The notes under the pieces were generated by a model. The model saw only the letters and a list, made by a program, of their open reading frames with translations. It did not search any database and had not been told where the DNA came from. Of a stretch of DNA of 64,000 bases, positions 6,822-62,282 are shown in pieces. The DNA lies in contig PAIP01000084.1 of the NCBI GenBank assembly GCA_002704915.1, positions 1 through 64,000 of the forward strand, in the 5' to 3' direction. The first letter of the stretch is position 1, and each line of letters begins with the position of its first letter. The translations under genes were made by a program, and so were the position numbers. Source of the stretch: Parvularcula sp. (GTDB lineage Bacteria; Pseudomonadota; Alphaproteobacteria; Caulobacterales; Parvularculaceae).

Positions 6822-8257
6822 CACCCGAGCTCCTTCATTCTGTCCGCGACGGCGTCGCGCGCAACGCTCGCATCGTCGAACGGAAAGACCTGATCCCCCA
6901 CCTGTTGCCCCGCTTCATGCCCCTTCCCCAAAATCAGGAGCACATCCCCCTCCGTCAGCATCGCGACCCCCGCCGCGATGGCCTCGCCCCGTTCGCCGAT
7001 CTCCTTTGCGTCAGGGCACCCTTTCAGCACCTCCGAGCGGATCGCCGCCGGATCTTCCGTACGCGGATTGTCATCCGTTACGATTACAAAGTCGGCGTTG
7101 TCTTTCGCCGCTGACCCCATGAGCGGGCGTTTTGTTTTGTCGCGATCGCCGCCGGCGCCGATAATGGCGATGACACGACCCGGCGCATGCGGCCGGATGG
7201 CTTTCAGCGCTGTGGCGACCGCGTCCGGCGTATGGGCGTAATCCACATAGACCCCGCCGCCGGCGATTTCGGCGACAAACTCCATGCGCCCCGGCGCGCC
7301 TTCAAGATTGGCGAGCTGCAACATGACGTCCGAGGCCCGCGCGCCGGAGGCGATCACGATGCCCGCGGCAAGCAATGCGTTTTCGGCCTGAAAGCCGCCG
7401 ATCAAGGGCGGATCGGCGCGATAGCGATAGCCGCCATATTCAATCTCCAGCGCAAGACCGCTCATATGCGGCTTGCAGTCGACCAGTTTGACGTCGCGGC
7501 CTTTGACGCCAGTTTGCACAGTGGGAAGGTTACGCTGTCGCGCCAACTCCACAATCCCTTCAGCGCCCTCCCCATCCATATTGATGGCGGCCGTGCCGCC
7601 TTTCGCCAGGAGATCGGAGAACAGCCGTCCCTTGGCTGCAAAATATTCTTCGAATGACGAATGGTAATCGAGATGGTCCTGGGTGATGTTGGTGAAGGCG
7701 GCGACGCGAAAATGAACGCCGTCGGCACGATGCTGCGCCAGGCCGTGACTGGACGCCTCCATCGCAAGATGGGTGACGCCGGCGCGGGCCATGGCGTCGA
7801 GCGTTTCATGAAGCATGACCGGGTCTGGCGTCGTGTGCTCAAGCGCGCGCTCAAAAACCCGCGACTGGGCGCCGAGCGTGCCCAGACTTCCGGCCTCAAG
7901 CCCGAGCAGCGTCCAGAGCTGCGCCGCAAAGCGCGCCGTCGACGTCTTGCCATTGGTGCCGGTCACCCCGGCGATAATGTCGGGTTGACGCGGATAAAAG
8001 CGCGCCGCCAATTGCGCCAGGCGCCGGCGCGGCTGTGGATCTGAAATGACCGGCAATGTCGACGTAACGCCCGGCATGGCGAGTATCGCCGCTGCGCCGT
8101 TTTCCTCCGCCTGACGGATGAATTTTGCGCCATCTGTTTTCACGCCCGGAAGCGCCGCAAACAGAAAGCCGCGCAAGACGGCGCGGCTGTCGGCGGTCAG
8201 CCCGTCAATTTGCGGATCGGGCTCGATCGTCTCATAGGCGAGTTCGGAAAGCCTCAT
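6821..8257 (-). CDS. murE: UDP-MurNAc-L-Ala-D-Glu--meso-diaminopimelate ligase MurE
   Basis: MurE adds the third residue of the stem peptide. The 478-residue protein shows TADSRAV (UDP site, about 21-27), the ATP loop GTNGKTS at 100-106, HTTPDP, and DDNPR at about 395-399. In characterised MurE proteins the DNPR motif marks specificity for meso-diaminopimelate rather than lysine, so a DAP-type wall is inferred. The stop overlaps murF and the start overlaps the ftsI stop by 4 nt. Confidence 0.96.
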   Translation of the reverse strand: MRLSELAYETIEPDPQIDGLTADSRAVLRGFLFAALPGVKTDGAKFIRQAEENGAAAILAMPGVTSTLPVISDPQPRRRLAQLAARFYPRQPDIIAGVTGTNGKTSTARFAAQLWTLLGLEAGSLGTLGAQSRVFERALEHTTPDPVMLHETLDAMARAGVTHLAMEASSHGLAQHRADGVHFRVAAFTNITQDHLDYHSSFEEYFAAKGRLFSDLLAKGGTAAINMDGEGAEGIVELARQRNLPTVQTGVKGRDVKLVDCKPHMSGLALEIEYGGYRYRADPPLIGGFQAENALLAAGIVIASGARASDVMLQLANLEGAPGRMEFVAEIAGGGVYVDYAHTPDAVATALKAIRPHAPGRVIAIIGAGGDRDKTKRPLMGSAAKDNADFVIVTDDNPRTEDPAAIRSEVLKGCPDAKEIGERGEAIAAGVAMLTEGDVLLILGKGHEAGQQVGDQVFPFDDASVARDAVADRMKELG

Positions 8258-10038
8258 GGCGCCCCCCCGCCTTTACCGGCGCCTCCTTCGTACCCACGCG
8301 AAAGTTTTGCTTCCCTGCGCAGAGACGGCGGCTCACCCGTCACGAAGGATGCAAGCGCCTCGGATTCATTGACTGGCGCCAGACCAAGCAAAGGCGCCGC
8401 GCGCTCGACAAATCGTGAAAAAGCCGGCGCGGCATTCCAGCCGGCCGTGGCGTAGCCATGGGTTCCCTCAGCCGGCTGAGGATTGTCATAGGTGATGAGA
8501 ACCGAATAGCGCGGCGCATAACCCGGCACGGCGCCGATAAAACTCGCAATACGGGCATTCGTATTGTAACCGCCGGTCAGCGATCGCTTGTCCGCCGTCG
8601 CCGTCTTGCCGATGGGAAAGAACCCTTCCACTTCTGCAAAGCTCGCCGTTCCATCGGTAACAACCCGCCGGAGAATGCGGCGCATGGCGGCGCTCGTTTC
8701 TTTTGAGAAGACGCGCGATCCTTCATCCGCCTTCTCAGGCGCCAGGAAATGCGGCGTCCGGTATTCGCCCCCATTCACCACCGCCGAAAACGCCGCAAGC
8801 AGGTGCAATGGCGTCACCGCAATGCCGTGACCATAGGAAATCGTCGCCGTTTCAACCGGCCCCCACTGCCAGGGAAGATCCGGCTCGCGGTTTTCCGCGA
8901 TCTCAATAGGCAGCGCGGAGAAAAGACCAAGCGCTTCGAGATAATGCTGCTGTTTTTGCGCGCCGAGATCGAGCGCCATGCGCGCCGCGCCGATATTGGA
9001 AGAATACTGCACCACTTCCGACAAGGTCAGGACGCGGTTTTCGCCATGGAAATCGGAGATGCGCCGATCGGCGACCTTGAACGTTCCGCGCGCGTCATAT
9101 GTCGTCGACTCCCGCCCGAGCCCTTCCTCAATCACCGCCGCCGCCGTAAACGCCTTGAAAGCGGAGCCCAGCTCATAGCGGTCATAGGTGGCGCGATTGC
9201 GGCGGGAATCCGCCCCGACGGCGCCCGGCGCGTTGGGATCGAAATCCGGCAAGCTCGCAAGGGCGATCACCTCGCCCGTCTCCACATCCATGACAGCCCC
9301 CCAGGCGGCTTCGGGCTGAAATTTCTCCATATCCGCCGCGAGTTCTTCTTCCAGGATCTGCTGCACGCGAATATCGATGCTGGCCCGCATGGGGCCCTTG
9401 CCCCGGTAACGATTGGCGGTTTTCTCAAGCCCCATGACGCCGCCCTTGCCGGGCTCGTCATGACCGATCACATGGGCGGCGAGATCGCCTTGCGGAAAGA
9501 AACGCTTCACCCGCGCAGCGAACCGCACGCCCGGCAGGCCGAGATCGAAAACCGCCTTGCGCTCGGCGGGCGTCAGATCCGCGCGCACTTCCACATAGCG
9601 CCCCTCGGCGAGCTTCTGCTCCAAAGCCGCGGCGTCCACATCGGAGAGAACGCCCGCAAGCTGTTGCGCGGCTTCTTTTGCGTCCCAAACTTCATTGCCC
9701 GCCACTTCCAGCGCGATCACCGGCACATCGACGGCGAGCAGCGCCCCGTTGCGATCGACGATTTCCGCGCGCGGCGCATCCAAACGCGGCGCCGATGCGT
9801 AATGCCCTGACGGCTGAAGCCCGCCGAATGAAATAAAGGCGAGCCGAACCCCGAGCGCGCCGAAAACGAAGACGAACACGGAAGCGCACATCATGATGCG
9901 GGTGCGCGCGCGCGCCGCTGTCCGGCCCCGCGCGCCAGTCGCCCGCACCTTGAACGCCTCGCTATCGGCGTCGGCGCCGTCAGCCTCGGCGATCACATAG
10001 GCTTTCGGTTTCGCTCGTTTCGACTTCCTCAGAAACAC
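8254..10038 (-). CDS. ftsI: Septal peptidoglycan transpeptidase FtsI (PBP3)
   Basis: FtsI cross-links septal peptidoglycan with FtsW. The 594-residue class B PBP has a basic cytoplasmic tail, one membrane helix at about 48-70, a dimerisation domain and a transpeptidase domain with SAFK (active Ser/Lys) and SSN. The third motif reads GKTATA where GKTGTA is usual: the KTG glycine is alanine. The start is a GTG at 10038, since no ATG precedes the membrane helix and AAAGGA lies upstream. The stop overlaps murE by 4 nt. The Ala in KTG is worth comparing with relatives. Confidence 0.93.
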   Translation of the reverse strand: MFLRKSKRAKPKAYVIAEADGADADSEAFKVRATGARGRTAARARTRIMMCASVFVFVFGALGVRLAFISFGGLQPSGHYASAPRLDAPRAEIVDRNGALLAVDVPVIALEVAGNEVWDAKEAAQQLAGVLSDVDAAALEQKLAEGRYVEVRADLTPAERKAVFDLGLPGVRFAARVKRFFPQGDLAAHVIGHDEPGKGGVMGLEKTANRYRGKGPMRASIDIRVQQILEEELAADMEKFQPEAAWGAVMDVETGEVIALASLPDFDPNAPGAVGADSRRNRATYDRYELGSAFKAFTAAAVIEEGLGRESTTYDARGTFKVADRRISDFHGENRVLTLSEVVQYSSNIGAARMALDLGAQKQQHYLEALGLFSALPIEIAENREPDLPWQWGPVETATISYGHGIAVTPLHLLAAFSAVVNGGEYRTPHFLAPEKADEGSRVFSKETSAAMRRILRRVVTDGTASFAEVEGFFPIGKTATADKRSLTGGYNTNARIASFIGAVPGYAPRYSVLITYDNPQPAEGTHGYATAGWNAAPAFSRFVERAAPLLGLAPVNESEALASFVTGEPPSLRREAKLSRGYEGGAGKGGGAP

Positions 10039-10068
10039 CGGCGGGGGTTTTCCTTTCAGAGGGTGATC

Positions 10069-10443
10069 CTATTGCGCATCCGTGACCTGCGCCATGGCGA
10101 GGGCGTGCAGGATGACATCGCTGTCGGGCGAAGGCGCGTCTTCTTCAGGGACATAATCCGTATCACCGAGAAGCGCCGCGAATTCTCGCGCGTTTACAAG
10201 CTGCCTGCTGTCCGATGGACGCAGATCGGTTTTCGCCGCCGCCACCTTCGCCAGCCGGTCAGGGTTTTCAAGGTAAGCGATTTCCGCGCGCAACATCTGG
10301 ATCGAACGCACCTCTTCCACCTGACTGGTTTCGATTTGCTCTATGTCCTCGCGCAACTCGCGCACGGAAACCTCAGCGCGATAACGCCCGAAGGCCGCCG
10401 CAGCCAGCAATACGCACAAAAATATAGTTGTGATACGGATCAT
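10069..10443 (-). CDS. ftsL: Cell division protein FtsL
   Basis: FtsL is the small bitopic divisome protein that bridges FtsB/FtsQ and activates FtsWI. The 124-residue product has one membrane helix at about 4-20, then a heptad-rich periplasmic coil (about 25-65) ending in LENPDRLAKVAA, which resembles the conserved NPxRIE/LA region of FtsL, and an acidic, probably disordered tail. Sequence identity in this family is low, so the call rests on topology and on its place between rsmH and ftsI. Its ATG follows the rsmH stop directly. Confidence 0.85.
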   Translation of the reverse strand: MIRITTIFLCVLLAAAAFGRYRAEVSVRELREDIEQIETSQVEEVRSIQMLRAEIAYLENPDRLAKVAAAKTDLRPSDSRQLVNAREFAALLGDTDYVPEEDAPSPDSDVILHALAMAQVTDAQ

Positions 10444-54482: not shown

Positions 54483-54558
<76 letters not shown>

Positions 54559-54966
54559 CTTCACTTCATCAAATCAAAAAGTTAGACGCCGCCAAGGTAA
54601 ATCCGGATGCGAACGATACTGGGTTGATAGTGTAGCGACACCGCTAATCGGCGCAAATTGCGTCACGGCTCCGGCGGCGCGAACAATGTCGTCCGGCTCA
54701 ATTATGACTATGACGCCCGCCGCAAGGTGACGTCGGTCACCGATGACGTGAACGCCGGGGAGGACCGCGCCTTCACCTATGATTACAACGGGCGGTTGTT
54801 GACGGCGTCGGGCCCCTGGGGCTCGGGGAGTTTCACCTACGACGCGCTCTCCAATCTGCGCCAGCAGACGCTGGGCGCGCGGACCATCACGGTCGCCTAT
54901 GACGGGACTAACCGCGTGTCCTCGGCCAACGACAACGGGTCGGTGAAGTCCTACGCCTATGATGCC

Positions 54967-55012
54967 CCGCGCGCGAAGGCGCGCTCTGATTTTGTTTGTC
55001 GGCCTTCGCCGA
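54967..55012. repeat. 46-bp palindromic insertion in rhs
   Basis: The Rhs frame reads YDA before and RGNATTVGPN after, so GATGCC and CGCGGCAAT would join cleanly if 54967-55012 were removed. The extra 46 bp contain GCGAAGGC and its inverse GCCTTCGC around an AT-rich loop (TGATTTTGTTTGTC), and shift the frame by one. Boundaries are accurate to a few bases. Confidence 0.65.
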
Positions 55013-55142
55013 CGCGGCAATGCGACCACCGTCGGGCCGAATGCGTTCGTTTATGATTTCGCCAATCAGCCGGTGAGCGTTTCGGGCGGCGCCGGCGGAA
55101 CTTATGAATATGACGCGAACCTCCAGCGCGTGAAATCCGTCG

Positions 55143-55200
55143 AATGATTTAGGGCGCGTTTTCTGCGGCGAACCGCTGCGCACTTCGCCGAAAAACGCTG
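55143..55200. repeat. 58-bp palindromic insertion in rhs, same loop family as 15125-15182
   Basis: The Rhs frame reads RVKSV before and RGDTIYSFYS after. The 58 bp between form a hairpin: arm GCGTTTTctGCGGCGAA, loop CCGCTGCGCAC, arm TTCGCCGAAAAACGC. The 11-nt loop fits CCG-N5-CAC, as in the repeat at 15125. The insertion brings a TGA and shifts the frame by one. Confidence 0.7.
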
Positions 55201-56256
55201 CGGGGCGACACAATCTATTCCTTCTACTCCCGGGTGACGGGGAATGTCGCCTTCCGTTACGATGTGACGAACGGCGTCCTCACCGAATACGCGTTTATCG
55301 GCCCCGCCTCGGTGCGCATCAAGAACGGCGTCGCCGAATATGTCCACGCCGACCATCTGGGCAGCCCCATCGCGGCGACGGACGCCGCCGGCAATGTCAC
55401 ATGGCGCGAGTCATACGACCCCTTCGGCGAGGCGCGGCTGAAACCCGCCGCCAATGACAACGACACCGGGTTTACGGGCCATATCGCCGACAAGGCGACC
55501 GGCCTCACCTACATGCAGGCCCGCTATTACGACCCCGTCATCGGCCGGTTCCTCTCCACCGATCCCATTGGGTATCAGGACCAGTTGAACCTCTACGCGT
55601 ATGTCCACAATGATCCGGTGAACATGGCCGATGCCAATGGCGAAGCAGCTTATCTAGTTGCACGCCCTGCAATGCTAGGAGCTAGTCATATGTTTGTCAT
55701 CGTCGTTGACGATTCTACGGGTGAGATTTGGCAATACTCGTTCGGCCCTCAAGGTGGTCCCGGTAATTTAGGTCAATTAGTGCTCAACACCGACTCAATA
55801 GCCGCCACCGATCGAGCTGCATTCAACACATTTCTGGCAGATCCAGAGGCCGCTCGCAGCGATGGCATCTCAGCTACCACTATAAACGCGTCTGATGACG
55901 CCGTCAGGGCTTCCGGCGATGCCATCGCAGCCGCCCTTGGAACGAAGGACAATCCAGGTGACATCAGGTACGTTGTTGTTCCTGACAAACGGTCTGGTCC
56001 GGATAGAGGTAATAGCAATTCTGCTGCTTATGCTGTGGCCGATAGGGCCAACCCGGATGACGCACAAAGTTTACCCCCAGGTGTACGGGCGCCTGGTTGG
56101 GGACAATCAGGAAATATTCCCAATCCGAAGCCAGATCGGCTTGAATTTAAGGGAGTATTTAAGGCAGAAGCAACACGAATACGGAATTGAGATTTACAGC
56201 AATTGTTGCAGCCCAGAGCTGCGCTACATAGATATGTAGCTTGGGAGTATTCACAA

Positions 56257-56616
56257 ATGAAATCGAAAATAATACCGATTTTTGTATTTTTATTGCTTAT
56301 ATTTATTATGCTTCTTCTTTCTAAAAAAGTGTTCCAGAAGGCTTTATTTGAACCTAATGGAACGATTCGGGAAGGTGGCGTTTTTGGAATTAGTATTGGA
56401 TCGCAGTCTGGTGAAATCGCGCCAGTGCTCTCGCGCCTAAAATTCTCAAGGGGAAGTAAATCAGTATTGCAATATTGTCCCGATGATATCTTTGCAGAGA
56501 GTAGTCATTCGGAAGTCTATACCCGGCAAAATTGGCCAAGCGGCATGATTTGCGTGCTTTATAAAGATGATAGAGTGACTACAATTTACTGGAGTTTGGA
56601 TCTTATTTATCTCTAA
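56257..56616 (+). CDS. Small membrane-anchored protein, possible Rhs immunity protein
   Basis: A 119-residue protein with one strong N-terminal hydrophobic helix (about 4-23) and a soluble remainder with CPDDIF and WPSGMICVLYKDD. It is AT-rich, unlike the chromosome core. It begins 66 nt after the Rhs C-terminal domain, the standard place for an immunity gene, with GGGAG upstream of the ATG. No family recognised. An inner-membrane anchor with a periplasmic domain would suit protection against an envelope-acting effector; this is inference from position only. Confidence 0.6.
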   Translation: MKSKIIPIFVFLLLIFIMLLLSKKVFQKALFEPNGTIREGGVFGISIGSQSGEIAPVLSRLKFSRGSKSVLQYCPDDIFAESSHSEVYTRQNWPSGMICVLYKDDRVTTIYWSLDLIYL

Positions 56617-56635
56617 CGGCAATTGACCGTATCAA

Positions 56636-56667
56636 GTAGGGCCTCCGCCGCGTAGCATTTGCCCGCC
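56636..56667 (+). repeat. Left REP-like element of RAYT locus 1
   Basis: Begins GTAGGG and ends GCATTTGCCCGCC, a degenerate form of the REP copy found inverted at 57246-57267. Confidence 0.5.
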
Positions 56668-56718
56668 ACTATTATGGGGAGGCTTGCGTGACGTTTATGT
56701 TCGTGGCTCAATCTTTCT

Positions 56719-57243
56719 ATGCCGGACTATCGCCGACGATACGCCGATGGCGGAATATATTTCCTGACGCTTTGCCTCGAAGACCGGCGAAGCGGTCTGT
56801 TGGTCCGTGAGATCGACAAACTTAGGGGGGCATGGCGCCGCGCCGCCGCCGCAAGGCCATTTGAAACGATTGCTGCGGTGGTCTTGCCCGATCATCTCCA
56901 TTTTCTCTGGCGCCTGCCCGATGACGATCACGATTTTCCGATACGGATTGCACAGTTGAAAGCAGGTTTCACAAGGGCCTTGCCCGAACCGGTCAAGCGC
57001 ACGGGGCGCAAGCGTGAACGCGGCGTGTGGCAGTCAAGATATTGGGAACACCTGATCCGCGATGGAGGGGATCTCGACCGTCACATCGACTATATTCACT
57101 TCAACCCGATCAAACACGGTTATGTTGATGATCCTGATAGCTGGCCCTATTCGACCTATAAGAAATGGAAAACGGACACCGGCAGACCGATCACCACCCC
57201 ACGGGGAGATTGGAAACCGCTTCACCTTGGTGAACGAGTTTGA
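56719..57243 (+). CDS. REP-associated tyrosine transposase (RAYT)
   Basis: A 174-residue single-domain Y1 transposase of the IS200/IS605-related RAYT group, which mobilises or maintains REP palindromes. The HUH motif is HLH in LPDHLHFLW near 57-65; the catalytic Tyr is in DYIHFNPIKHG near 133-143. The N-terminus MPDYRRRYADGGIYFLTL and the C-terminal WPYSTYKKW are family hallmarks. It looks intact. Inverted REP elements lie on both sides (56636 and 57246). A decayed relative stands 640 bp downstream. Confidence 0.92.
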   Translation: MPDYRRRYADGGIYFLTLCLEDRRSGLLVREIDKLRGAWRRAAAARPFETIAAVVLPDHLHFLWRLPDDDHDFPIRIAQLKAGFTRALPEPVKRTGRKRERGVWQSRYWEHLIRDGGDLDRHIDYIHFNPIKHGYVDDPDSWPYSTYKKWKTDTGRPITTPRGDWKPLHLGERV

Positions 57244-57245
57244 TT

Positions 57246-57267
57246 GGCGGGCAGATGCCCGCCCTAC
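57246..57267 (-). repeat. Right REP element of RAYT locus 1
   Basis: GGCGGGCA-GA-TGCCCGCC followed by CTAC: an 8-bp perfect stem. In reverse it reads GTAGGGCGGGCA and onward, the GTAG-headed REP form that RAYTs recognise. It starts 2 nt after the RAYT stop. Confidence 0.8.
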
Positions 57268-57362
57268 GAGGTGCGAAGCACCTCATGCTGTGACAAGCGG
57301 CGGGGCGGAAGCCGCCAAACAAGTCGAACCAATCGATCCAGACAAAGAGAGGCGGTGACCCA

Positions 57363-57536
57363 ATGAGACACAGGGGACGAGTTCTGTTTGTAATGACAAT
57401 AATTTTTTTCGCTCCGGTAGCCTTTGTGTGGTTGCGATATCCCGACAGCCCGCACACCACAGAGGCAACTATCGCCGCAGTTGTAGGGATCATTTTCCTT
57501 GCAGGGTGGCTCTTCCTATTGGGCGGAAAGAAATGA
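57363..57536 (+). CDS. Small two-helix membrane protein
   Basis: A 57-residue frame starting MRHRGRVLFV with two hydrophobic segments (about 7-23 and 36-54) and ending GGKK. It has positive residues at both ends, suggesting both termini are cytoplasmic. GAGAGGCGG lies upstream of the ATG. No family recognised; composition is AT-richer than the core. Confidence 0.5.
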   Translation: MRHRGRVLFVMTIIFFAPVAFVWLRYPDSPHTTEATIAAVVGIIFLAGWLFLLGGKK

Positions 57537-57598
57537 CGCGGATTCTTTGTTGTCGAATAGCGATTGGTGGATCGCAAGATAAAGGGAACGGCGCATTT

Positions 57599-57701
57599 GG
57601 CGCCACGTTCCCGTTAAGGGATTGTCTGCACACGGGTTTTTATAGTGCAAATTGGCGCCATCGGTTCCCGTCGAGGCGCCGTTTTGGCGCCAATTGGCGC
57701 C
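57599..57701. repeat. Cluster of GGCGCC palindromes
   Basis: GGCGCC occurs at 57599, 57654, 57675, 57686 and 57696, mostly inside TTGGCGCCA, with two more at 57836 and 57879. The 348-base gap 57537-57884 holds this cluster and a REP element and no convincing gene. Confidence 0.6.
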
Positions 57702-57809
57702 TGGGATGCAGATGCCTGGGATTGCGGGGATTTGCGCTATACGGAAGATCGCCGATGTGCTGAGATCGGGGCATGTCGCGTAATGGTGGGAACGGTTTAA
57801 CCGGAGCAA

Positions 57810-57841
57810 GTAGGGTGCATTAAGCGGTAGCGCAAGGCGCC
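57810..57841 (+). repeat. Left REP element of RAYT locus 2
   Basis: Reads GTAGGGTGCATTAAGC, a short spacer and GCGCAAGGCGCC. It is the inverted partner of 58256-58288 and is a different REP family from that of RAYT locus 1. Confidence 0.8.
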
Positions 57842-57884
57842 ATTCAAACCATCCCCTCGTAATGCGTTTGGTTATTCTGGCGCC

Positions 57885-58220
57885 ATGCCCGATTAGCGGC
57901 GCATATTTGTTGCGGGCGGAGATTACTTCTTCACCGTAAATCTGCTTAATCGGCATCAATCCTTGTTGACCGATAACATCGGCAAGTTGCGCGCTGCGTA
58001 TGGCGATGCGCGCGCCGGCCGCCGCAAAGGCGAACGTGGCGTGTGGCAAAGGCGGTTTTGGGAGCATCTCATTCGCGACGGAGACGATCTTGATCGCCAT
58101 GTTGACTACACCCGCTGGAATCCCGTGAAGCACGGCCTTGTCGATAGTCCTGATGATTGGCCCTATTCGACCTATAAGGAATGGAAAAAGGACTGGCAGG
58201 CCGATCGATATTCCGCGTGA
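57885..58220 (+). pseudogene. Decayed second RAYT gene
   Basis: Reads MPD, then TAG where the intact copy has Tyr, then RRIFVAGGDYFFTVNLLNR, followed by an internal deletion of about 50 codons that removes the HUH motif, and resumes at RKGERGVWQRRFWEHLIRDG with DYTRWNPVKHG and WPYSTYKEW. It lacks catalytic parts and cannot be active. It is clearly related to the intact RAYT at 56719 but not identical, and sits exactly between two inverted REP copies of its own type. Confidence 0.88.
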
Positions 58221-58255
58221 GGATTGGAAACCTCTTTATCTGGGCGAACATTGAC

Positions 58256-58288
58256 GGCGCATTGCGCCTTCGGCTTGATGCACCCTAC
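58256..58288 (-). repeat. Right REP element of RAYT locus 2
   Basis: Reads GGCGCATTGCGCC, CTTCGGCTTGATG and CACCCTAC; in reverse it begins GTAGGGTGCATCAAGC, matching the left copy at 57810 with a few substitutions. Confidence 0.8.
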
Positions 58289-58300
58289 CTGCTCGCTTAG

Positions 58301-58726
58301 CTAAGATCGTGTTCGCCTCCCCAAAATCCGTGACGCCGCGAAGTAGCCGATGAGAACCCCCGGAACTGTCCAGGCGAGATCGTGCCAGTCGAAAGCCCCG
58401 TACGGCATGAAGAGTTGGAGCCCTTCCCAGGCCCAAAGCCCCAATAGGGCGAGCGCCGCCGCGCCCAGGTCGACTTTTCCTTGCGGTACGCCTTTGACCA
58501 TTTCCCGGGCCACAATATTAATGCCGCCTGTAAGGGAGACAGCTCCGAGAAAATTGGGCGCCACGCCCGCAAGATAAGTTATGGTCGCTGTTTCCTGGCC
58601 GCCGCCAGCCAGACCCGGACGGAAGACGTCCTGCACATAGTGATAAAGCAGCCCCGGCAGCAGAGAGACCAAGACGAAGGCGATCGCCGCCCTCAGAGGT
58701 GTGGGTTTCGAAACCTTATCGTCCAT
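58301..58726 (-). CDS. Membrane protein of unknown function (VanZ-like topology)
   Basis: A 141-residue protein with about four hydrophobic segments (near 12-30, 47-65, 87-102 and 120-135). The stretch WEGLQLFMPYGAFDWHDLAWTVPGV resembles small VanZ-like or DUF-type membrane proteins, but I cannot name a family with confidence. The ATG at 58726 has GGAG upstream; a start 7 codons earlier is possible. Confidence 0.6.
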   Translation of the reverse strand: MDDKVSKPTPLRAAIAFVLVSLLPGLLYHYVQDVFRPGLAGGGQETATITYLAGVAPNFLGAVSLTGGINIVAREMVKGVPQGKVDLGAAALALLGLWAWEGLQLFMPYGAFDWHDLAWTVPGVLIGYFAASRILGRRTRS

Positions 58727-58804
58727 CCGGGCGCTCTCCAATCTCACGGCGAAGATGTCGTCTTATTTTCTTTCCCGCCTCTGCGTAGCGGGCCCGAAAT
58801 TCTC

Positions 58805-60103
58805 TCAGTAAGTCCAACTCAAAGACAGGTTCGCATAGTGAAGGCGGCCGTCTTGACTGGCGTCAAGGACGCTTCCCGCCGCACTGAAAACATAGGCCGA
58901 CTCAACGCTCACCCCCTCGGCGAGTCGCCATACGGCCCGCACGAACGCAATATCCGCGACGCGGCTCCCCTCTCCCGCCCGCGGCGGAACCAGAATTTCA
59001 TAAGGAACACGATAGACAGCATCGGTTTCTCGAAGCCGCCAGATTCGTCCCGCCGCGATTTCAAACGTCACATTTTCGCTTGGCTCGATCAGCCCGTAGG
59101 CCTGAAGGTCCAATGCATTGGCCGGCGCTATCGTTGCCGCATCCGAATAATAAGCAAAGCGCGGATAGATGGCGCTGAAGGTCTGAAGATCTCCATCGTC
59201 CGGATCGCGGTCCCCGGAGACAACGTTGCCCCGCAACCCCAGCCGATGATCGCGGCGTCCTGACGTCAGGGGCGTATTGGCGTCAAAAGCTGCGCCCCAC
59301 GCATTAATCGCGTTATCAGCGAATTTCCCGAACTGATAGATTGTCTCAATGTTCACATCCGTTGCGCCGACGCGGCCGAAGAGCCTTGCCCCGACCGAAT
59401 GGCGCGTTTCGGCCCCTTGCGCCCAGACGGTCCGCGCATCCCGCCGCCCAAAATAATATAGATCGAGATTGATCCGTTCCCGGATATCTTGCCGACCTAG
59501 ATAGGCCCCCCAGAAAGCCTCGGCGAGATTCGTCTTATCATCGAACAGGCCAGGCGATAGCCGCACAGGACGCAGGGCGAACAGGCTAAGACGCGCGCCT
59601 CCGCTTTCGGCCACGACCGAAACGCCGTCGAAGGTTCTGACCGCATTGGGCGCTTCGCGGGCTGCGTTAAGACGAGACTCCCCTTGGGGATTGCGTTGTC
59701 GCCCAAGACGGCCGGAAACGGTCCATCCGGCCATCTCACGCCCGTAAGCCAAATATCCCTGCAAGAGATCGCCATCATTGCGGTCGAGACTACGATCCCT
59801 GGCGCCGCCGCCTTCTTCGCCATAAAACCCAAGCTCGCCGTATACGGACCAACCGGACTGACTTCGAATCGAGGCGGCGAGCGTCGATCGATATTGGAAA
59901 GAGGCAAAATCCTGGGTCTCGGCAAGACCGAAAAAAGGGTTGTCATAGGCATCGATCCGCAGGCGCGACGCCCCTTCAAAGTCGATGCTCCATCCATGGT
60001 TCTGCGCCATGGCGCCAGAAAAGGACGATGCGACCGCGCAGGCGATGGTTAAGCACGACGCCCACAAGAGGCCGGACGGCGTCTTTCGCCGGCGCCGGCT
60101 CAT
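58805..60103 (-). CDS. Alginate-export-type outer membrane channel
   Basis: A 432-residue precursor: signal peptide at about 1-33 (ending AMA), then a beta-barrel pattern of alternating strands ending in an aromatic terminal strand LSLSWTY. Motifs such as RLGRQ, FDGVSVVAES, and FWGAYLGRQ with DLYYFGRRD match the alginate export (PF13372) family. Such porins pass small organic or aromatic compounds in many species. Its start overlaps the hydrolase stop by 4 nt, so it is the last gene of an operon that may feed the upstream enzymes. Confidence 0.8.
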   Translation of the reverse strand: MSRRRRKTPSGLLWASCLTIACAVASSFSGAMAQNHGWSIDFEGASRLRIDAYDNPFFGLAETQDFASFQYRSTLAASIRSQSGWSVYGELGFYGEEGGGARDRSLDRNDGDLLQGYLAYGREMAGWTVSGRLGRQRNPQGESRLNAAREAPNAVRTFDGVSVVAESGGARLSLFALRPVRLSPGLFDDKTNLAEAFWGAYLGRQDIRERINLDLYYFGRRDARTVWAQGAETRHSVGARLFGRVGATDVNIETIYQFGKFADNAINAWGAAFDANTPLTSGRRDHRLGLRGNVVSGDRDPDDGDLQTFSAIYPRFAYYSDAATIAPANALDLQAYGLIEPSENVTFEIAAGRIWRLRETDAVYRVPYEILVPPRAGEGSRVADIAFVRAVWRLAEGVSVESAYVFSAAGSVLDASQDGRLHYANLSLSWTY

Positions 60104-61042
60104 TGATCTGTTTGCGTCTTGCGAAAAAAGGCCTGCATCCGATCGGCGAGGAAGGCAGGCTTTTCTTCCGGCAGCAGATGCCCGGCGCCGGGAATAATCC
60201 CGCCGACAGCGCTTTGCGTGATATAGCTCATCTGTTCGTGGGTTACTGGCACGCCGAATTCGCCGCCCCAGGCCATAACCGGCGCATGCATCCCTGCCTC
60301 GCCGATCGCCCTGAGCTGCCGCGCCGTTTCGAAACTCGCGCGATACCAGCCGACACTGCCCCGGATCCCATTTTCAGCGCGCAGACTGTCGGCATAGATC
60401 CGCCGATCCTCGGCTGTCACGGCATCCGGATTTGGCGCATGCATCAGGGGCACGATCCAATCCACGAACGCCTGTTCCTTTAAGCAATAACTCGGGCAGG
60501 CCGGGCGCGGTGTTGAACCCGAAATGCCAATAGCCTCCGTAATTTTCTTCCCTATAGACCGTGAACTGATCGAGATTGTAGCCCACAAGCGGCTCATCCA
60601 GATAGGTGAGCGATATCGTCTCCTCGGGATAAGTTCCTGCGAAAGCCAGAGTGACGAGCGCGCCCATGTCATGTCCGACAATGTGGCTCCTCGATTTTCC
60701 CAAATGGCCAAGAATCCCCCGAATATCCGTAGCCAGATTAACTGCATCATAGCCGTCTTCGGGTTTGTCGGTGCCGCCATAGCCGCGCATATCGGGAACG
60801 ATCACGAACCAGTCATCGGCCAAAAGGGGCGCAAGCTTTCTCCAGCTATGGGACGTTCCCATCCAGCCATGCATCAGGACCACCGCCTCCTTCTTGCGGC
60901 TGCCATAGATCGCGACATTGTAGACGACGCCATTGGTTTCGATCTTCATCTGTTGATCTCCCTGTGTCGTTTCGGCCGCGGCCATGCTTGCGATGAATAC
61001 GATGGCGACGATTGCGGCCATGGCGGCTCGAGCGACAGTCAT
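60100..61042 (-). pseudogene. Alpha/beta hydrolase (epoxide-hydrolase-like), frameshifted
   Basis: Signal peptide at about 1-22, then an alpha/beta hydrolase core: MHGWMGTSHSWRKLAPLL, VPDMRGYGGTDKP, and the nucleophile elbow VGHDMGALV (Asp). At LPELLLK the frame shifts by one base near 60478-60484 (run CTTAAAGGAAC), and the rest (EQAFVDWIVPLMH, catalytic region PGAGHLLPEEKPAF) continues in another frame to the stop at 60100. Removing one base restores a protein of about 313 residues. It could be real decay or a sequencing error. It overlaps both neighbours by 4 nt. Confidence 0.82.
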
Positions 61043-61674
61043 GAGGATCCTCCCGGAAGGTTCGCCATGATGTACTCGACAGCCCACTGAACTCCGCCGC
61101 CATGCGCCAGGGTGATCGGATAAAGATTTTGATATTCGGGGGCGGAATTGTCCGGGCACCATTCGGCCATCACCGCAAACCAGCTCATCGGCACAGCGCC
61201 GCGCTGAACCATCCGCTCACAGGCCCGCTGATGCGCTTCAGAACTGAGTCCGCCCGATGCATCGGCGACGAAGTAGACTTCATAGCCGTCAGCCAGCGCG
61301 GAAATGCTGGTCTGGGCTAGACAGACTTCCGTCCAAAGCCCCGCCATGACCAGCTTCTTTCGCCCTGTCGCCTCAACCGCACTGACGAAGGCCGGATCCG
61401 ACCAGGCATTCGTGTTCGTTCGGTCGATGGGCTTCTGGTCCGGAAAAATGCCGCTCAGACCGGCGAGCAAAGGATCCCGCAAGGGCCCGCCCTCGCCATT
61501 AATGGTCGTCAGGATTGTCGGGACCGACAGGGTCTTCGCAGCTTTCGCCAGCGCAATCACATTGTTGGTCAGCAGCTCCGGCGCAATCGACGTCACCGGA
61601 AAGGCGACCCAAGGCTGATGGTCGATCAGGCAGAGGACGCTATTGTCCGTGGTCAGTTCATTAATCGTGTGCAT
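61039..61674 (-). CDS. Isochorismatase-family cysteine hydrolase
   Basis: A 211-residue protein of the isochorismatase-like fold. The triad is visible: Asp in LIDHQPW near 20, Lys in GRKKLVMAGLW and Cys in WTEVCLAQTSISAL near 117. The group includes YcaC-like hydrolases, which act on amides and related compounds; the true substrate is unknown. The ATG at 61674 follows GGAG; the longer frame has no homology. It overlaps the hydrolase start by 4 nt. Confidence 0.88.
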   Translation of the reverse strand: MHTINELTTDNSVLCLIDHQPWVAFPVTSIAPELLTNNVIALAKAAKTLSVPTILTTINGEGGPLRDPLLAGLSGIFPDQKPIDRTNTNAWSDPAFVSAVEATGRKKLVMAGLWTEVCLAQTSISALADGYEVYFVADASGGLSSEAHQRACERMVQRGAVPMSWFAVMAEWCPDNSAPEYQNLYPITLAHGGGVQWAVEYIMANLPGGSS

Positions 61675-61748
61675 TTTCGGACGATCTCCCGTCAGGTTTA
61701 AAGTTCCGCTGTTGAAGAAATGACCATCACCATCTCGAAAACTGACGC

Positions 61749-62282
61749 CTAGTCTTGCGCGGGCGCTGACATCATGGCCTGCATGGCCGCCTTTGTTGAT
61801 GGATCGAGGACGGAATTGTGACGGATCAACGCCCATTCGCCGTCCCGCTTCTCGAAGGTGTCGGTGTTCAGTGCGGACCCCACATAGTCGACGGACGCTG
61901 TGCGCTCGAAGACGATCAGATAGGTCGTCACCTCGGCGCGGCTCTCATCTCCGCTGAAGAGGAAATTCGCCGCCACATGGCGCTTGCCGGTGATGAACGG
62001 CCTTGATTGCTCCAGCGCTGCCGCAATGGCGTCTCGTCCCCTCGCCGTACCGAAGTCGGAAATGAACTCCGCGTCTTCTCCGAAAAAGCTCGCATAAAGA
62101 TCATAATCCGCCGCATCGAGCGCGTGGTTCAGACGCACGATGACCTGCCGAAGCGCGGCCTGATCTTTCACGGAAAGACCGTTTCTTTCAGTGATGTAGG
62201 CAGTGTCGGGCGAGGGCTGCGCGGCCGCCATGGCCGGCGCCATGAAAGCGAGGGCCGCCAGAACTGCTCTTTCAAAAGGCAT
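61749..62282 (-). CDS. SnoaL-like (NTF2 fold) periplasmic protein
   Basis: A 177-residue precursor with a signal peptide (about 1-21, ending AAA). The mature part is a SnoaL/NTF2-type cone: LRQVIVRLNHALDAADYDLYASFF, then EFISDFGTARGRDAIAAAL, and an antiparallel sheet ending GEWALIRHN. Members are isomerases, hydrolases or ligand-binding proteins. First gene of the operon; a palindromic motif lies 95 nt upstream. Confidence 0.82.
   Translation of the reverse strand: MPFERAVLAALAFMAPAMAAAQPSPDTAYITERNGLSVKDQAALRQVIVRLNHALDAADYDLYASFFGEDAEFISDFGTARGRDAIAAALEQSRPFITGKRHVAANFLFSGDESRAEVTTYLIVFERTASVDYVGSALNTDTFEKRDGEWALIRHNSVLDPSTKAAMQAMMSAPAQD

What the first reader, a model, noticed from the sequence alone, without database searches (positions are those of the whole stretch)
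54634..56616. Orphan Rhs C-terminal effector module with candidate immunity gene at tRNA-Phe
A truncated Rhs core keeps an intact C-terminal domain (HxFVIV and GNSNSAAYAV motifs suggesting a hydrolase-like site) followed by an AT-rich small membrane protein. Orphan tip modules serve as a reservoir for swapping onto full-length Rhs proteins. The effector/immunity pair is not one I can name.
Basis: partly seen in the sequence, partly recalled or inferred. Interest (0 to 1): 0.6.

Follow-up and report, generated by a model that had tools for sequence, protein, structure and literature searches.

The report
Stranded Rhs toxin tip with immunity
A broken bacterial weapon gene next to a tRNA keeps an intact toxin end and a fast-changing membrane immunity gene; the same pair sits side by side in other bacteria, and the toxin probably attacks the cell envelope, which makes it a new family inside a known kind of bacterial warfare system.

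Summary
After tRNA-Phe (54483-54558) come a broken Rhs core (about 54650-55641), an intact 182-residue tip (55642-56190) and a 119-residue AT-rich membrane protein (56257-56616). Neither small protein matches Pfam, NCBIfam or PADLOC.

Six tip relatives were found, all in alphaproteobacteria. One relative is a full-length Rhs with a signal-peptide-like start; five are truncated strays.

The immunity model is confident (pLDDT 90): a membrane helix plus a domain with weak likeness to BLIP and BamE. Membrane-anchored BamE-like immunity to lipid-targeting toxins is already described. The tip model is poor (pLDDT 57); its best, weak matches include permuted NlpC/P60 proteins, with His before an invariant N-S-N at a helix start. 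I read it as a permuted NlpC/P60-like lipid hydrolase, perhaps with Ser for Cys; a profile comparison with Peptidase_C92 found nothing.

No full-length rhs was found in this genome, so tip swapping looks idle; retained immunity is likelier. New member of a known kind, modest interest.

The parts
54483..54558 (+). tRNA-Phe (GAA), likely integration site upstream of the module
   Evidence: no second copy of its 3' end in the window
54650..55641 (+). Remnant of an Rhs core, in three frames; start approximate
54968..55015 (.). Palindrome pair inside the core where the frame changes; bounds approximate, by eye
   Evidence: sequence; frames
55156..55198 (.). Palindrome inside the core beside a stop; the pattern tried was found only here in this genome
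55234..56190 (+). Last open frame (GTG start, no clear ribosome site by eye): core end plus toxin tip, 318 aa
55414..55641 (+). Rhs_assc_core (TIGR03696) match
55642..56190 (+). Toxin tip, 182 aa, no Pfam, NCBIfam or PADLOC family
   Evidence: relatives
55687..55704 (+). HMFVIV: His16 (invariant), candidate catalytic His on a strand
56008..56037 (+). GNSNSAAYAV: invariant N-S-N, candidate nucleophile Ser125 at a helix start
56243..56247 (+). GGGAG, ribosome-binding-site-like, 9 bases before the immunity ATG
56257..56616 (+). Candidate immunity protein, 119 aa: one membrane helix plus a domain with weak likeness to BLIP and BamE

Best explanation
This is a displaced (orphan) Rhs C-terminal toxin and immunity pair that arrived at a tRNA-Phe site. 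The delivery part (Rhs core) is broken and the tip frame lacks a clear start signal, so the toxin is probably not delivered now. The tip is inferred to be an envelope-acting enzyme with a circularly permuted NlpC/P60-like fold: His16 on a strand, and the N-S-N motif at the start of a later helix supplying the nucleophile (Ser125 here where the family usually has Cys), cutting an acyl or amide bond in phospholipid, lipoprotein or peptidoglycan. In a full-length relative the Rhs protein starts with a signal-peptide-like sequence, so the tip would be met outside the cytoplasm. The downstream protein is inferred to sit in the inner membrane with its BamE-like domain in the periplasm, where it binds and blocks the tip. 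Shown here: conserved pairing, conserved motifs, the hydrophobic N-terminus, the broken core, and the tRNA position. Inferred: toxicity, chemistry, direction of the membrane protein, binding.
For: Pairing: the partner directly follows the tip in the window and in all 6 relatives (gaps of 66, 36, 7, 22 and 71 bases, two overlaps); leave-one-out profiles find the left-out tip (7 of 7, E 2e-56 to 3e-18; for L021 its second part) and the left-out partner (7 of 7 best in its own locus, E 2e-22 to 0.018) in a set of 1113 open frames. Full-length relative: L005/G487, open frame 2197 aa, signal-peptide-like N-terminus by eye. Immunity: pLDDT 90.3, pTM 0.79; the second look lists BLIP (Z 3.1 to 5.2, best over 60 residues at 2.6 A; 7 of 50 rows) and BAM-complex chains (Z 3.0 to 4.4; about a dozen of 50 rows); hydrophobic N-terminus in 18 of 18 proteins examined, lipobox-like site in 3 of 18, one of them loose. 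Published match of kind: membrane-anchored, rapidly evolving BamE-like immunity paired with lipid-targeting toxins; toxins of that group include a papain-like fatty acyltransferase (PMC12419801, sections 29 and 30 read). Tip fold: of 997 chains the two best are Aichivirus 2A (Z 4.7) and TseH (Z 4.0), and rank 6 is human CLN5 (Z 3.3 over 125 residues); TseH is permuted NlpC/P60 (PMC12994826 passages), the likeness of 2A and CLN5 to this group is recalled. Mobility: both Rhs core ends found in this genome lie 3' of a tRNA gene (the remnants start about 0.1 and 0.6 kb from it), the second with an integrase fragment between.
Against: The tip model is poor (pLDDT 56.9; residues 112-124 under 50, block 121-130 mean 50). 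Foldseek's best E was 0.68 in PDB and 0.07 in viral models, neither row naming this fold. Profile comparison of the tips with nine Peptidase_C92 proteins gave no match (probability 0.02; background pairs 0.04 and 0.11). The acidic third residue is not strictly conserved: the E28 column is acidic in 5 of 6 rows, and L021 has Asn there. For the immunity model Foldseek's best E was 0.31, with no BamE among the 50 rows shown, and the top second-look row is an anti-CRISPR protein (6exp, Z 6.0). The partners share only 20-37% identity; those of L022 and L030 are recovered only at E 0.00045 and 0.018. No attachment-site repeat was found in the window.
Confidence: 0.6

Rival explanations
1. The pair is a true toxin and immunity module, but the tip has another fold and chemistry (for example an uncharacterised beta-rich enzyme, or a peptidoglycan-cutting amidase).
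For: No trusted family match for the tip in Pfam, NCBIfam, PHROGs or PADLOC; weak structure matches; no profile match to Peptidase_C92.
Against: Order His then N-S-N at a helix start, and the best structural matches, fit the permuted NlpC/P60 layout; a BamE-like partner fits lipid-targeting toxins.
Confidence: 0.3
2. Plain debris: tip and immunity gene are both decaying leftovers with no present function.
For: Core broken, no clear start signal for the tip; the L021 relative has a broken tip and L036 and L039 hold only remnants.
Against: Tip and immunity frames are both intact and the immunity gene keeps a ribosome-site-like sequence. Selection could not be measured: synonymous sites gave no estimate.
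Confidence: 0.3
3. Silent reservoir whose tip can recombine onto a full-length Rhs, as evidence suggests for Salmonella LT2 (PMC3967940, passages read).
For: A core end is kept upstream of the tip, which would give homology; a full-length Rhs with this tip exists elsewhere.
Against: Two Rhs core ends were found in this 98.95% complete, 85-contig genome and both are truncated.
Confidence: 0.12
4. The downstream gene is an ordinary BamE-like envelope protein that lies there by accident.
For: BamE itself is a housekeeping protein; 11 of 16 genomes with a relative have no intact tip beside it.
Against: It follows the tip in 7 of 7 loci, in several unrelated surroundings.
Confidence: 0.05

Closest known systems
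Orphan rhs-CT/rhsI pairs of Enterobacteriaceae (PMC3967940, passages read)
   Same: Displaced tip with part of the core, followed by an immunity gene, without start signal
   Different: Here no full-length rhs lies upstream or was found in the genome; the module lies at a tRNA and its core is internally broken
BamE-like immunity proteins of lipid-targeting polymorphic toxins (PMC12419801, sections 29 and 30 read)
   Same: Small, membrane-anchored, rapidly diverging, likeness to BamE, beside a toxin domain thought to act outside the cytoplasm
   Different: Partner tip here is Rhs-borne and unnamed; whether it is the papain-like acyltransferase type listed there was not tested
Tox-Act1 and TseH, permuted NlpC/P60 toxins (PMC12994826, passages read)
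   Same: His before nucleophile, membrane-associated immunity (Tox-Act1), weak structural match to TseH (Z 4.0)
   Different: Ser in place of Cys, Rhs-borne, different immunity (Imm-Act1 has two membrane helices), no sequence match shown
Serine-bearing papain-like families DUF2145, DUF2272, DUF3750, menin (PMC10318531, section 6 read)
   Same: Ser at the place of the catalytic Cys, activity unproven
   Different: Not described as toxin tips in that section; relation to this tip not tested

Membership tests
Orphan Rhs tip and immunity pair | Truncated core joined to an intact C-terminal domain | tested here: met
Orphan Rhs tip and immunity pair | Same tip found on a full-length Rhs elsewhere | tested here: met
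   L005, 59-60% identical tip on an open frame of 2197 aa
Orphan Rhs tip and immunity pair | Conserved neighbour gene acting as immunity | tested here: inconclusive
   Conserved neighbour: 7 of 7 loci; protection not testable here
Orphan Rhs tip and immunity pair | Full-length main rhs gene upstream in the same locus (the enterobacterial layout) | tested here: not met
   The core remnant starts about 0.1 kb after the tRNA; two truncated Rhs loci were found in the genome
BamE-like immunity protein | Membrane anchor or lipoprotein signal | tested here: met
   Hydrophobic N-terminus 18 of 18, lipobox-like site 3 of 18, one of them loose
BamE-like immunity protein | BamE-like fold | tested here: inconclusive
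   Confident model; BAM-complex and BLIP chains among the second-look rows, Z 3.0 to 5.2, below an unrelated top row; none among the 50 Foldseek rows shown; the two-helix hairpin of the paper was not checked
Permuted NlpC/P60 superfamily | His before a nucleophile that starts a helix | tested here: inconclusive
   Seen in the model, but pLDDT is about 50 or below there
Permuted NlpC/P60 superfamily | Catalytic Cys | tested here: not met
   Ser125 in 6 of 6; residue 127 is Cys in 1 of these 6 (L020) and in L021
Permuted NlpC/P60 superfamily | Fold match | tested here: inconclusive
   Z 4.7 and 4.0 to two members, tied with unrelated rows
Peptidase_C92 (PF05708) | Sequence profile similarity | tested here: not met
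   Probability 0.02 against nine proteins (nine of the eleven places); only six tips in the query profile
Lipocone toxins | Helical lipocone core | tested here: inconclusive
   Model is strand-rich at its N-terminus, but of low confidence

The most novel reading that the evidence does not exclude
The tip is a serine-based, circularly permuted NlpC/P60 lipid hydrolase or acyltransferase used as an Rhs toxin, with Ser and Cys exchanged around one N-S-N core motif, and countered by a BamE-like immunity protein that outlives its toxin in many genomes as a stand-alone shield.
Probability: 0.3. Interest if true: 0.5.

Novelty: new member of a known kind. Interest (0 to 1): 0.36.

Why it matters
It adds an unnamed toxin and immunity family, with a testable active site, to the alphaproteobacteria, and suggests that a fast-changing BamE-like immunity class also guards against an Rhs tip. 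If Ser really replaces Cys, it would make the open question whether serine papain-like proteins are active directly testable. The immunity genes without an intact tip suggest that defence is kept after the weapon is lost.

Tried and rejected
Considered and rejected: attachment-site duplication of the tRNA end inside the window (none). Viral and plasmid carriage of the tip (no relative in viral contigs; none in plasmids; phage records were not searched). Weak tip hits in genome searches, read frame by frame and judged by eye, are other proteins or no coherent gene: G051 (two places), G085, G125, G244, G360, G806 and the own-genome C15 place, which looks like an RNA polymerase beta subunit, and G769. 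Sequence search of solved structures with both alignments: only unrelated weak rows (E 0.14 or worse). Pfam hit Arabino_trans_C in one of six tips (E 0.0028; again E 0.006 in the L030 frame, below its cut-off) treated as chance. Weak Pfam hits among the 17 immunity relatives treated as chance: PASTA in 2 (best E 0.034), YNR034W-A-like in 1, Imm51 in 1 (E 0.17). The L005 partner matches phrog_18767, of unknown function, at E 0.002; not followed. Foldseek for both models: nothing at E 0.001 or better. Peptidase_C92 profile comparison: negative (two of eleven places, below the cut-off, were left out). dN/dS of window tip against L005 tip: dN 0.40, dS not computable, so no statement on selection. 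Palindrome in the core as a high-copy repeat: the pattern tried occurs once in the genome, on both strands, and a 101-base search found only itself. Fold families absent from the second-look lists are not excluded.

Paper searches listed no paper that I recognised as describing this N-S-N tip; for most papers only the listing was seen. PMC12042878 and PMC3482391 (passages) gave nothing that settles the tip.

Full report
What is there. The window region holds tRNA-Phe at 54483-54558, an Rhs core remnant, an intact tip (55642-56190) and a small membrane protein gene (56257-56616). The core end matches Rhs_assc_core at E 3.3e-27 and an upstream piece matches the Rhs core and YD repeats. The core is not one frame: it is split between about 54650 and 55641, with a frame change at a palindrome pair and a stop beside a second palindrome. 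The tip and the small protein have no family in Pfam, NCBIfam or PADLOC at E 1 or better; in PHROGs the last open frame matches only over its core part, and the window's small protein not at all.

Relatives. The tip is rare. In the order-level sample 10 of 398 genomes gave a match at E 0.01 or better; I count 5 of these as real (the window's own, G297, G011, G039, G180) and read and rejected the other 5. At class level 4 of 385 matched with a profile; besides the own genome, G487 and G666 are real and G769 is not. At phylum level 3 of 378 matched: the own genome, G011 again, and G806, rejected. In the order of G666, 1 of 82, itself. The samples overlap in part. That makes six relatives: L005/G487, G297 (L019), G011 (L020), G039 (L021), G180 (L022), G666 (L030).

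Full-length or stray. Only L005 is full length: an open frame of 2197 aa with RHS repeats and a start that looks like a Sec signal peptide by eye. The other five are truncated as far as read: core remnants of roughly 25 to 260 residues before the tip. The G039 tip is itself broken. In G180 a second core end lies about 0.75 kb upstream, so strays may pile up at one site.

Pairing. In the window and all six relatives a small membrane protein gene follows the tip, by 7 to 71 bases or with overlap in two. Identity among these proteins is only 20-37%, while the tips keep 29-60%, so I tested homology by leaving each out in turn: profiles of the other six find the left-out tip in 7 of 7 and the left-out partner in 7 of 7 as the best frame of its own locus, the weakest at E 0.00045 (G180) and 0.018 (G666). 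The same family was found in 16 of 398 genomes of the order sample. Five of these lie beside tips. Of the other 11, three show remnants: L039 has an Rhs core piece (E 7e-12) and an N-S-N-bearing tip piece (E 0.005) before it, L036 has an N-S-N-S-bearing piece before it (E 0.11, so mainly by eye), and L041 has an Rhs core end on its far side (E 2e-18); the other eight showed nothing at E 1 with the tip profile. The immunity gene therefore seems to outlast the toxin.

Structure. The immunity model is confident (pLDDT 90.3): a helix at residues 5-22 that fits a membrane anchor, then a helix-and-strand domain. The second look ranks an anti-CRISPR protein first (Z 6.0), with BLIP at 5.2 and about a dozen BAM-complex rows up to 4.4; Foldseek alone gave no BamE among the 50 rows shown, best E 0.31. 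All 18 proteins examined have a hydrophobic N-terminus, and three have a lipobox-like site, one of them loose, which speaks for the periplasmic side. The tip model is poor (pLDDT 56.9, six sequences). It has four strands, with His16 on the second, then helices with a short fifth strand between, and N-S-N at the start of the helix 125-136. Among 997 chains the two best are Aichivirus 2A (Z 4.7, 88 residues, 3.5 A) and TseH (Z 4.0, 110 residues, 4.7 A); human CLN5 is sixth (Z 3.3, 125 residues); a bluetongue capsid protein, unrelated, is third at 3.8. TseH is described as permuted NlpC/P60 with phospholipase activity (PMC12994826, passages); that Aichivirus 2A and CLN5 are papain-like proteins with His before Cys is recalled. 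In LRAT the triad is Cys161, His60, His72 (PMC12225734, one passage); in the tip His16 and Glu28 are also 12 apart, but the acidic residue is not strictly conserved. These matches are weak and the profile comparison with Peptidase_C92 was negative, so the fold stands at about even odds.

How it likely works. The published precedent is close: BamE-like, membrane-anchored immunity proteins accompany lipid-targeting toxins, and toxins of that group include a papain-like fatty acyltransferase (PMC12419801, sections 29 and 30); and Tox-Act1 is a periplasm-acting phospholipase with a membrane immunity protein (PMC12994826, passages). By this analogy the tip attacks an acyl or amide bond in the envelope and the partner blocks it there. 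Serine at the place of the usual cysteine is known in a few papain-like families, where activity is unproven (PMC10318531, section 6). That the catalytic Cys of permuted NlpC/P60 enzymes starts a helix is from PMC3142127 (passages).

Site and history. In this genome two Rhs core ends were found. The second, on contig 22, lies about 0.6 kb 3' of a tRNA-Tyr with an integrase fragment between, and carries a different tip and candidate partner. So 2 of 2 lie behind tRNA genes, which suggests arrival by tRNA-directed integration. Twenty loci with this tRNA-Phe were fetched from 28 genomes of the genus. None of the 19 others shares DNA with the window's 54559-62000 in the stretch held behind the tRNA; for 17 of them that stretch is 316 to 1504 bases, and two end at the tRNA and could not show it. 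No attachment repeat remains in the window. With no full-length rhs found, the tip cannot be passed to one known in this assembly; retained immunity is the more economical present role.

Verdict. The system kind is known (orphan Rhs pairs; BamE-like immunity; permuted NlpC/P60 toxins); the tip family is not in the family libraries searched.

Noticed in passing
window 56719-57243 and 57963-58220: A REP-associated tyrosine transposase gene (NF047646, E 8.6e-50) and a fragment of a second one (E 2.2e-21) follow the immunity gene; the fragment is flanked by inverted repeats 57804-57830 and 58268-58294.
   Followed up: partly
window 54968-55015 and 55156-55198: Two palindromic elements lie inside the Rhs core where it is broken; the pattern tried for the second occurs once in the genome, so they are not shown to belong to a high-copy family.
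   Followed up: partly
L018 (G000:C22) 7920-10183: Second stray Rhs tip of the same genome: tRNA-Tyr, integrase fragment (Arm-DNA-bind_3, E 1.3e-8), Rhs core end with a different tip, and a 158-aa candidate immunity gene.
   Followed up: partly
L022 5061-5126 and 3258-4314: Two Rhs core ends in tandem in G180, the second with the tip and immunity gene; it looks like an array of stray tips.
   Followed up: partly
L036 to L046: Eleven relatives of the immunity gene without an intact tip beside them; three show tip or Rhs remnants.
   Followed up: yes
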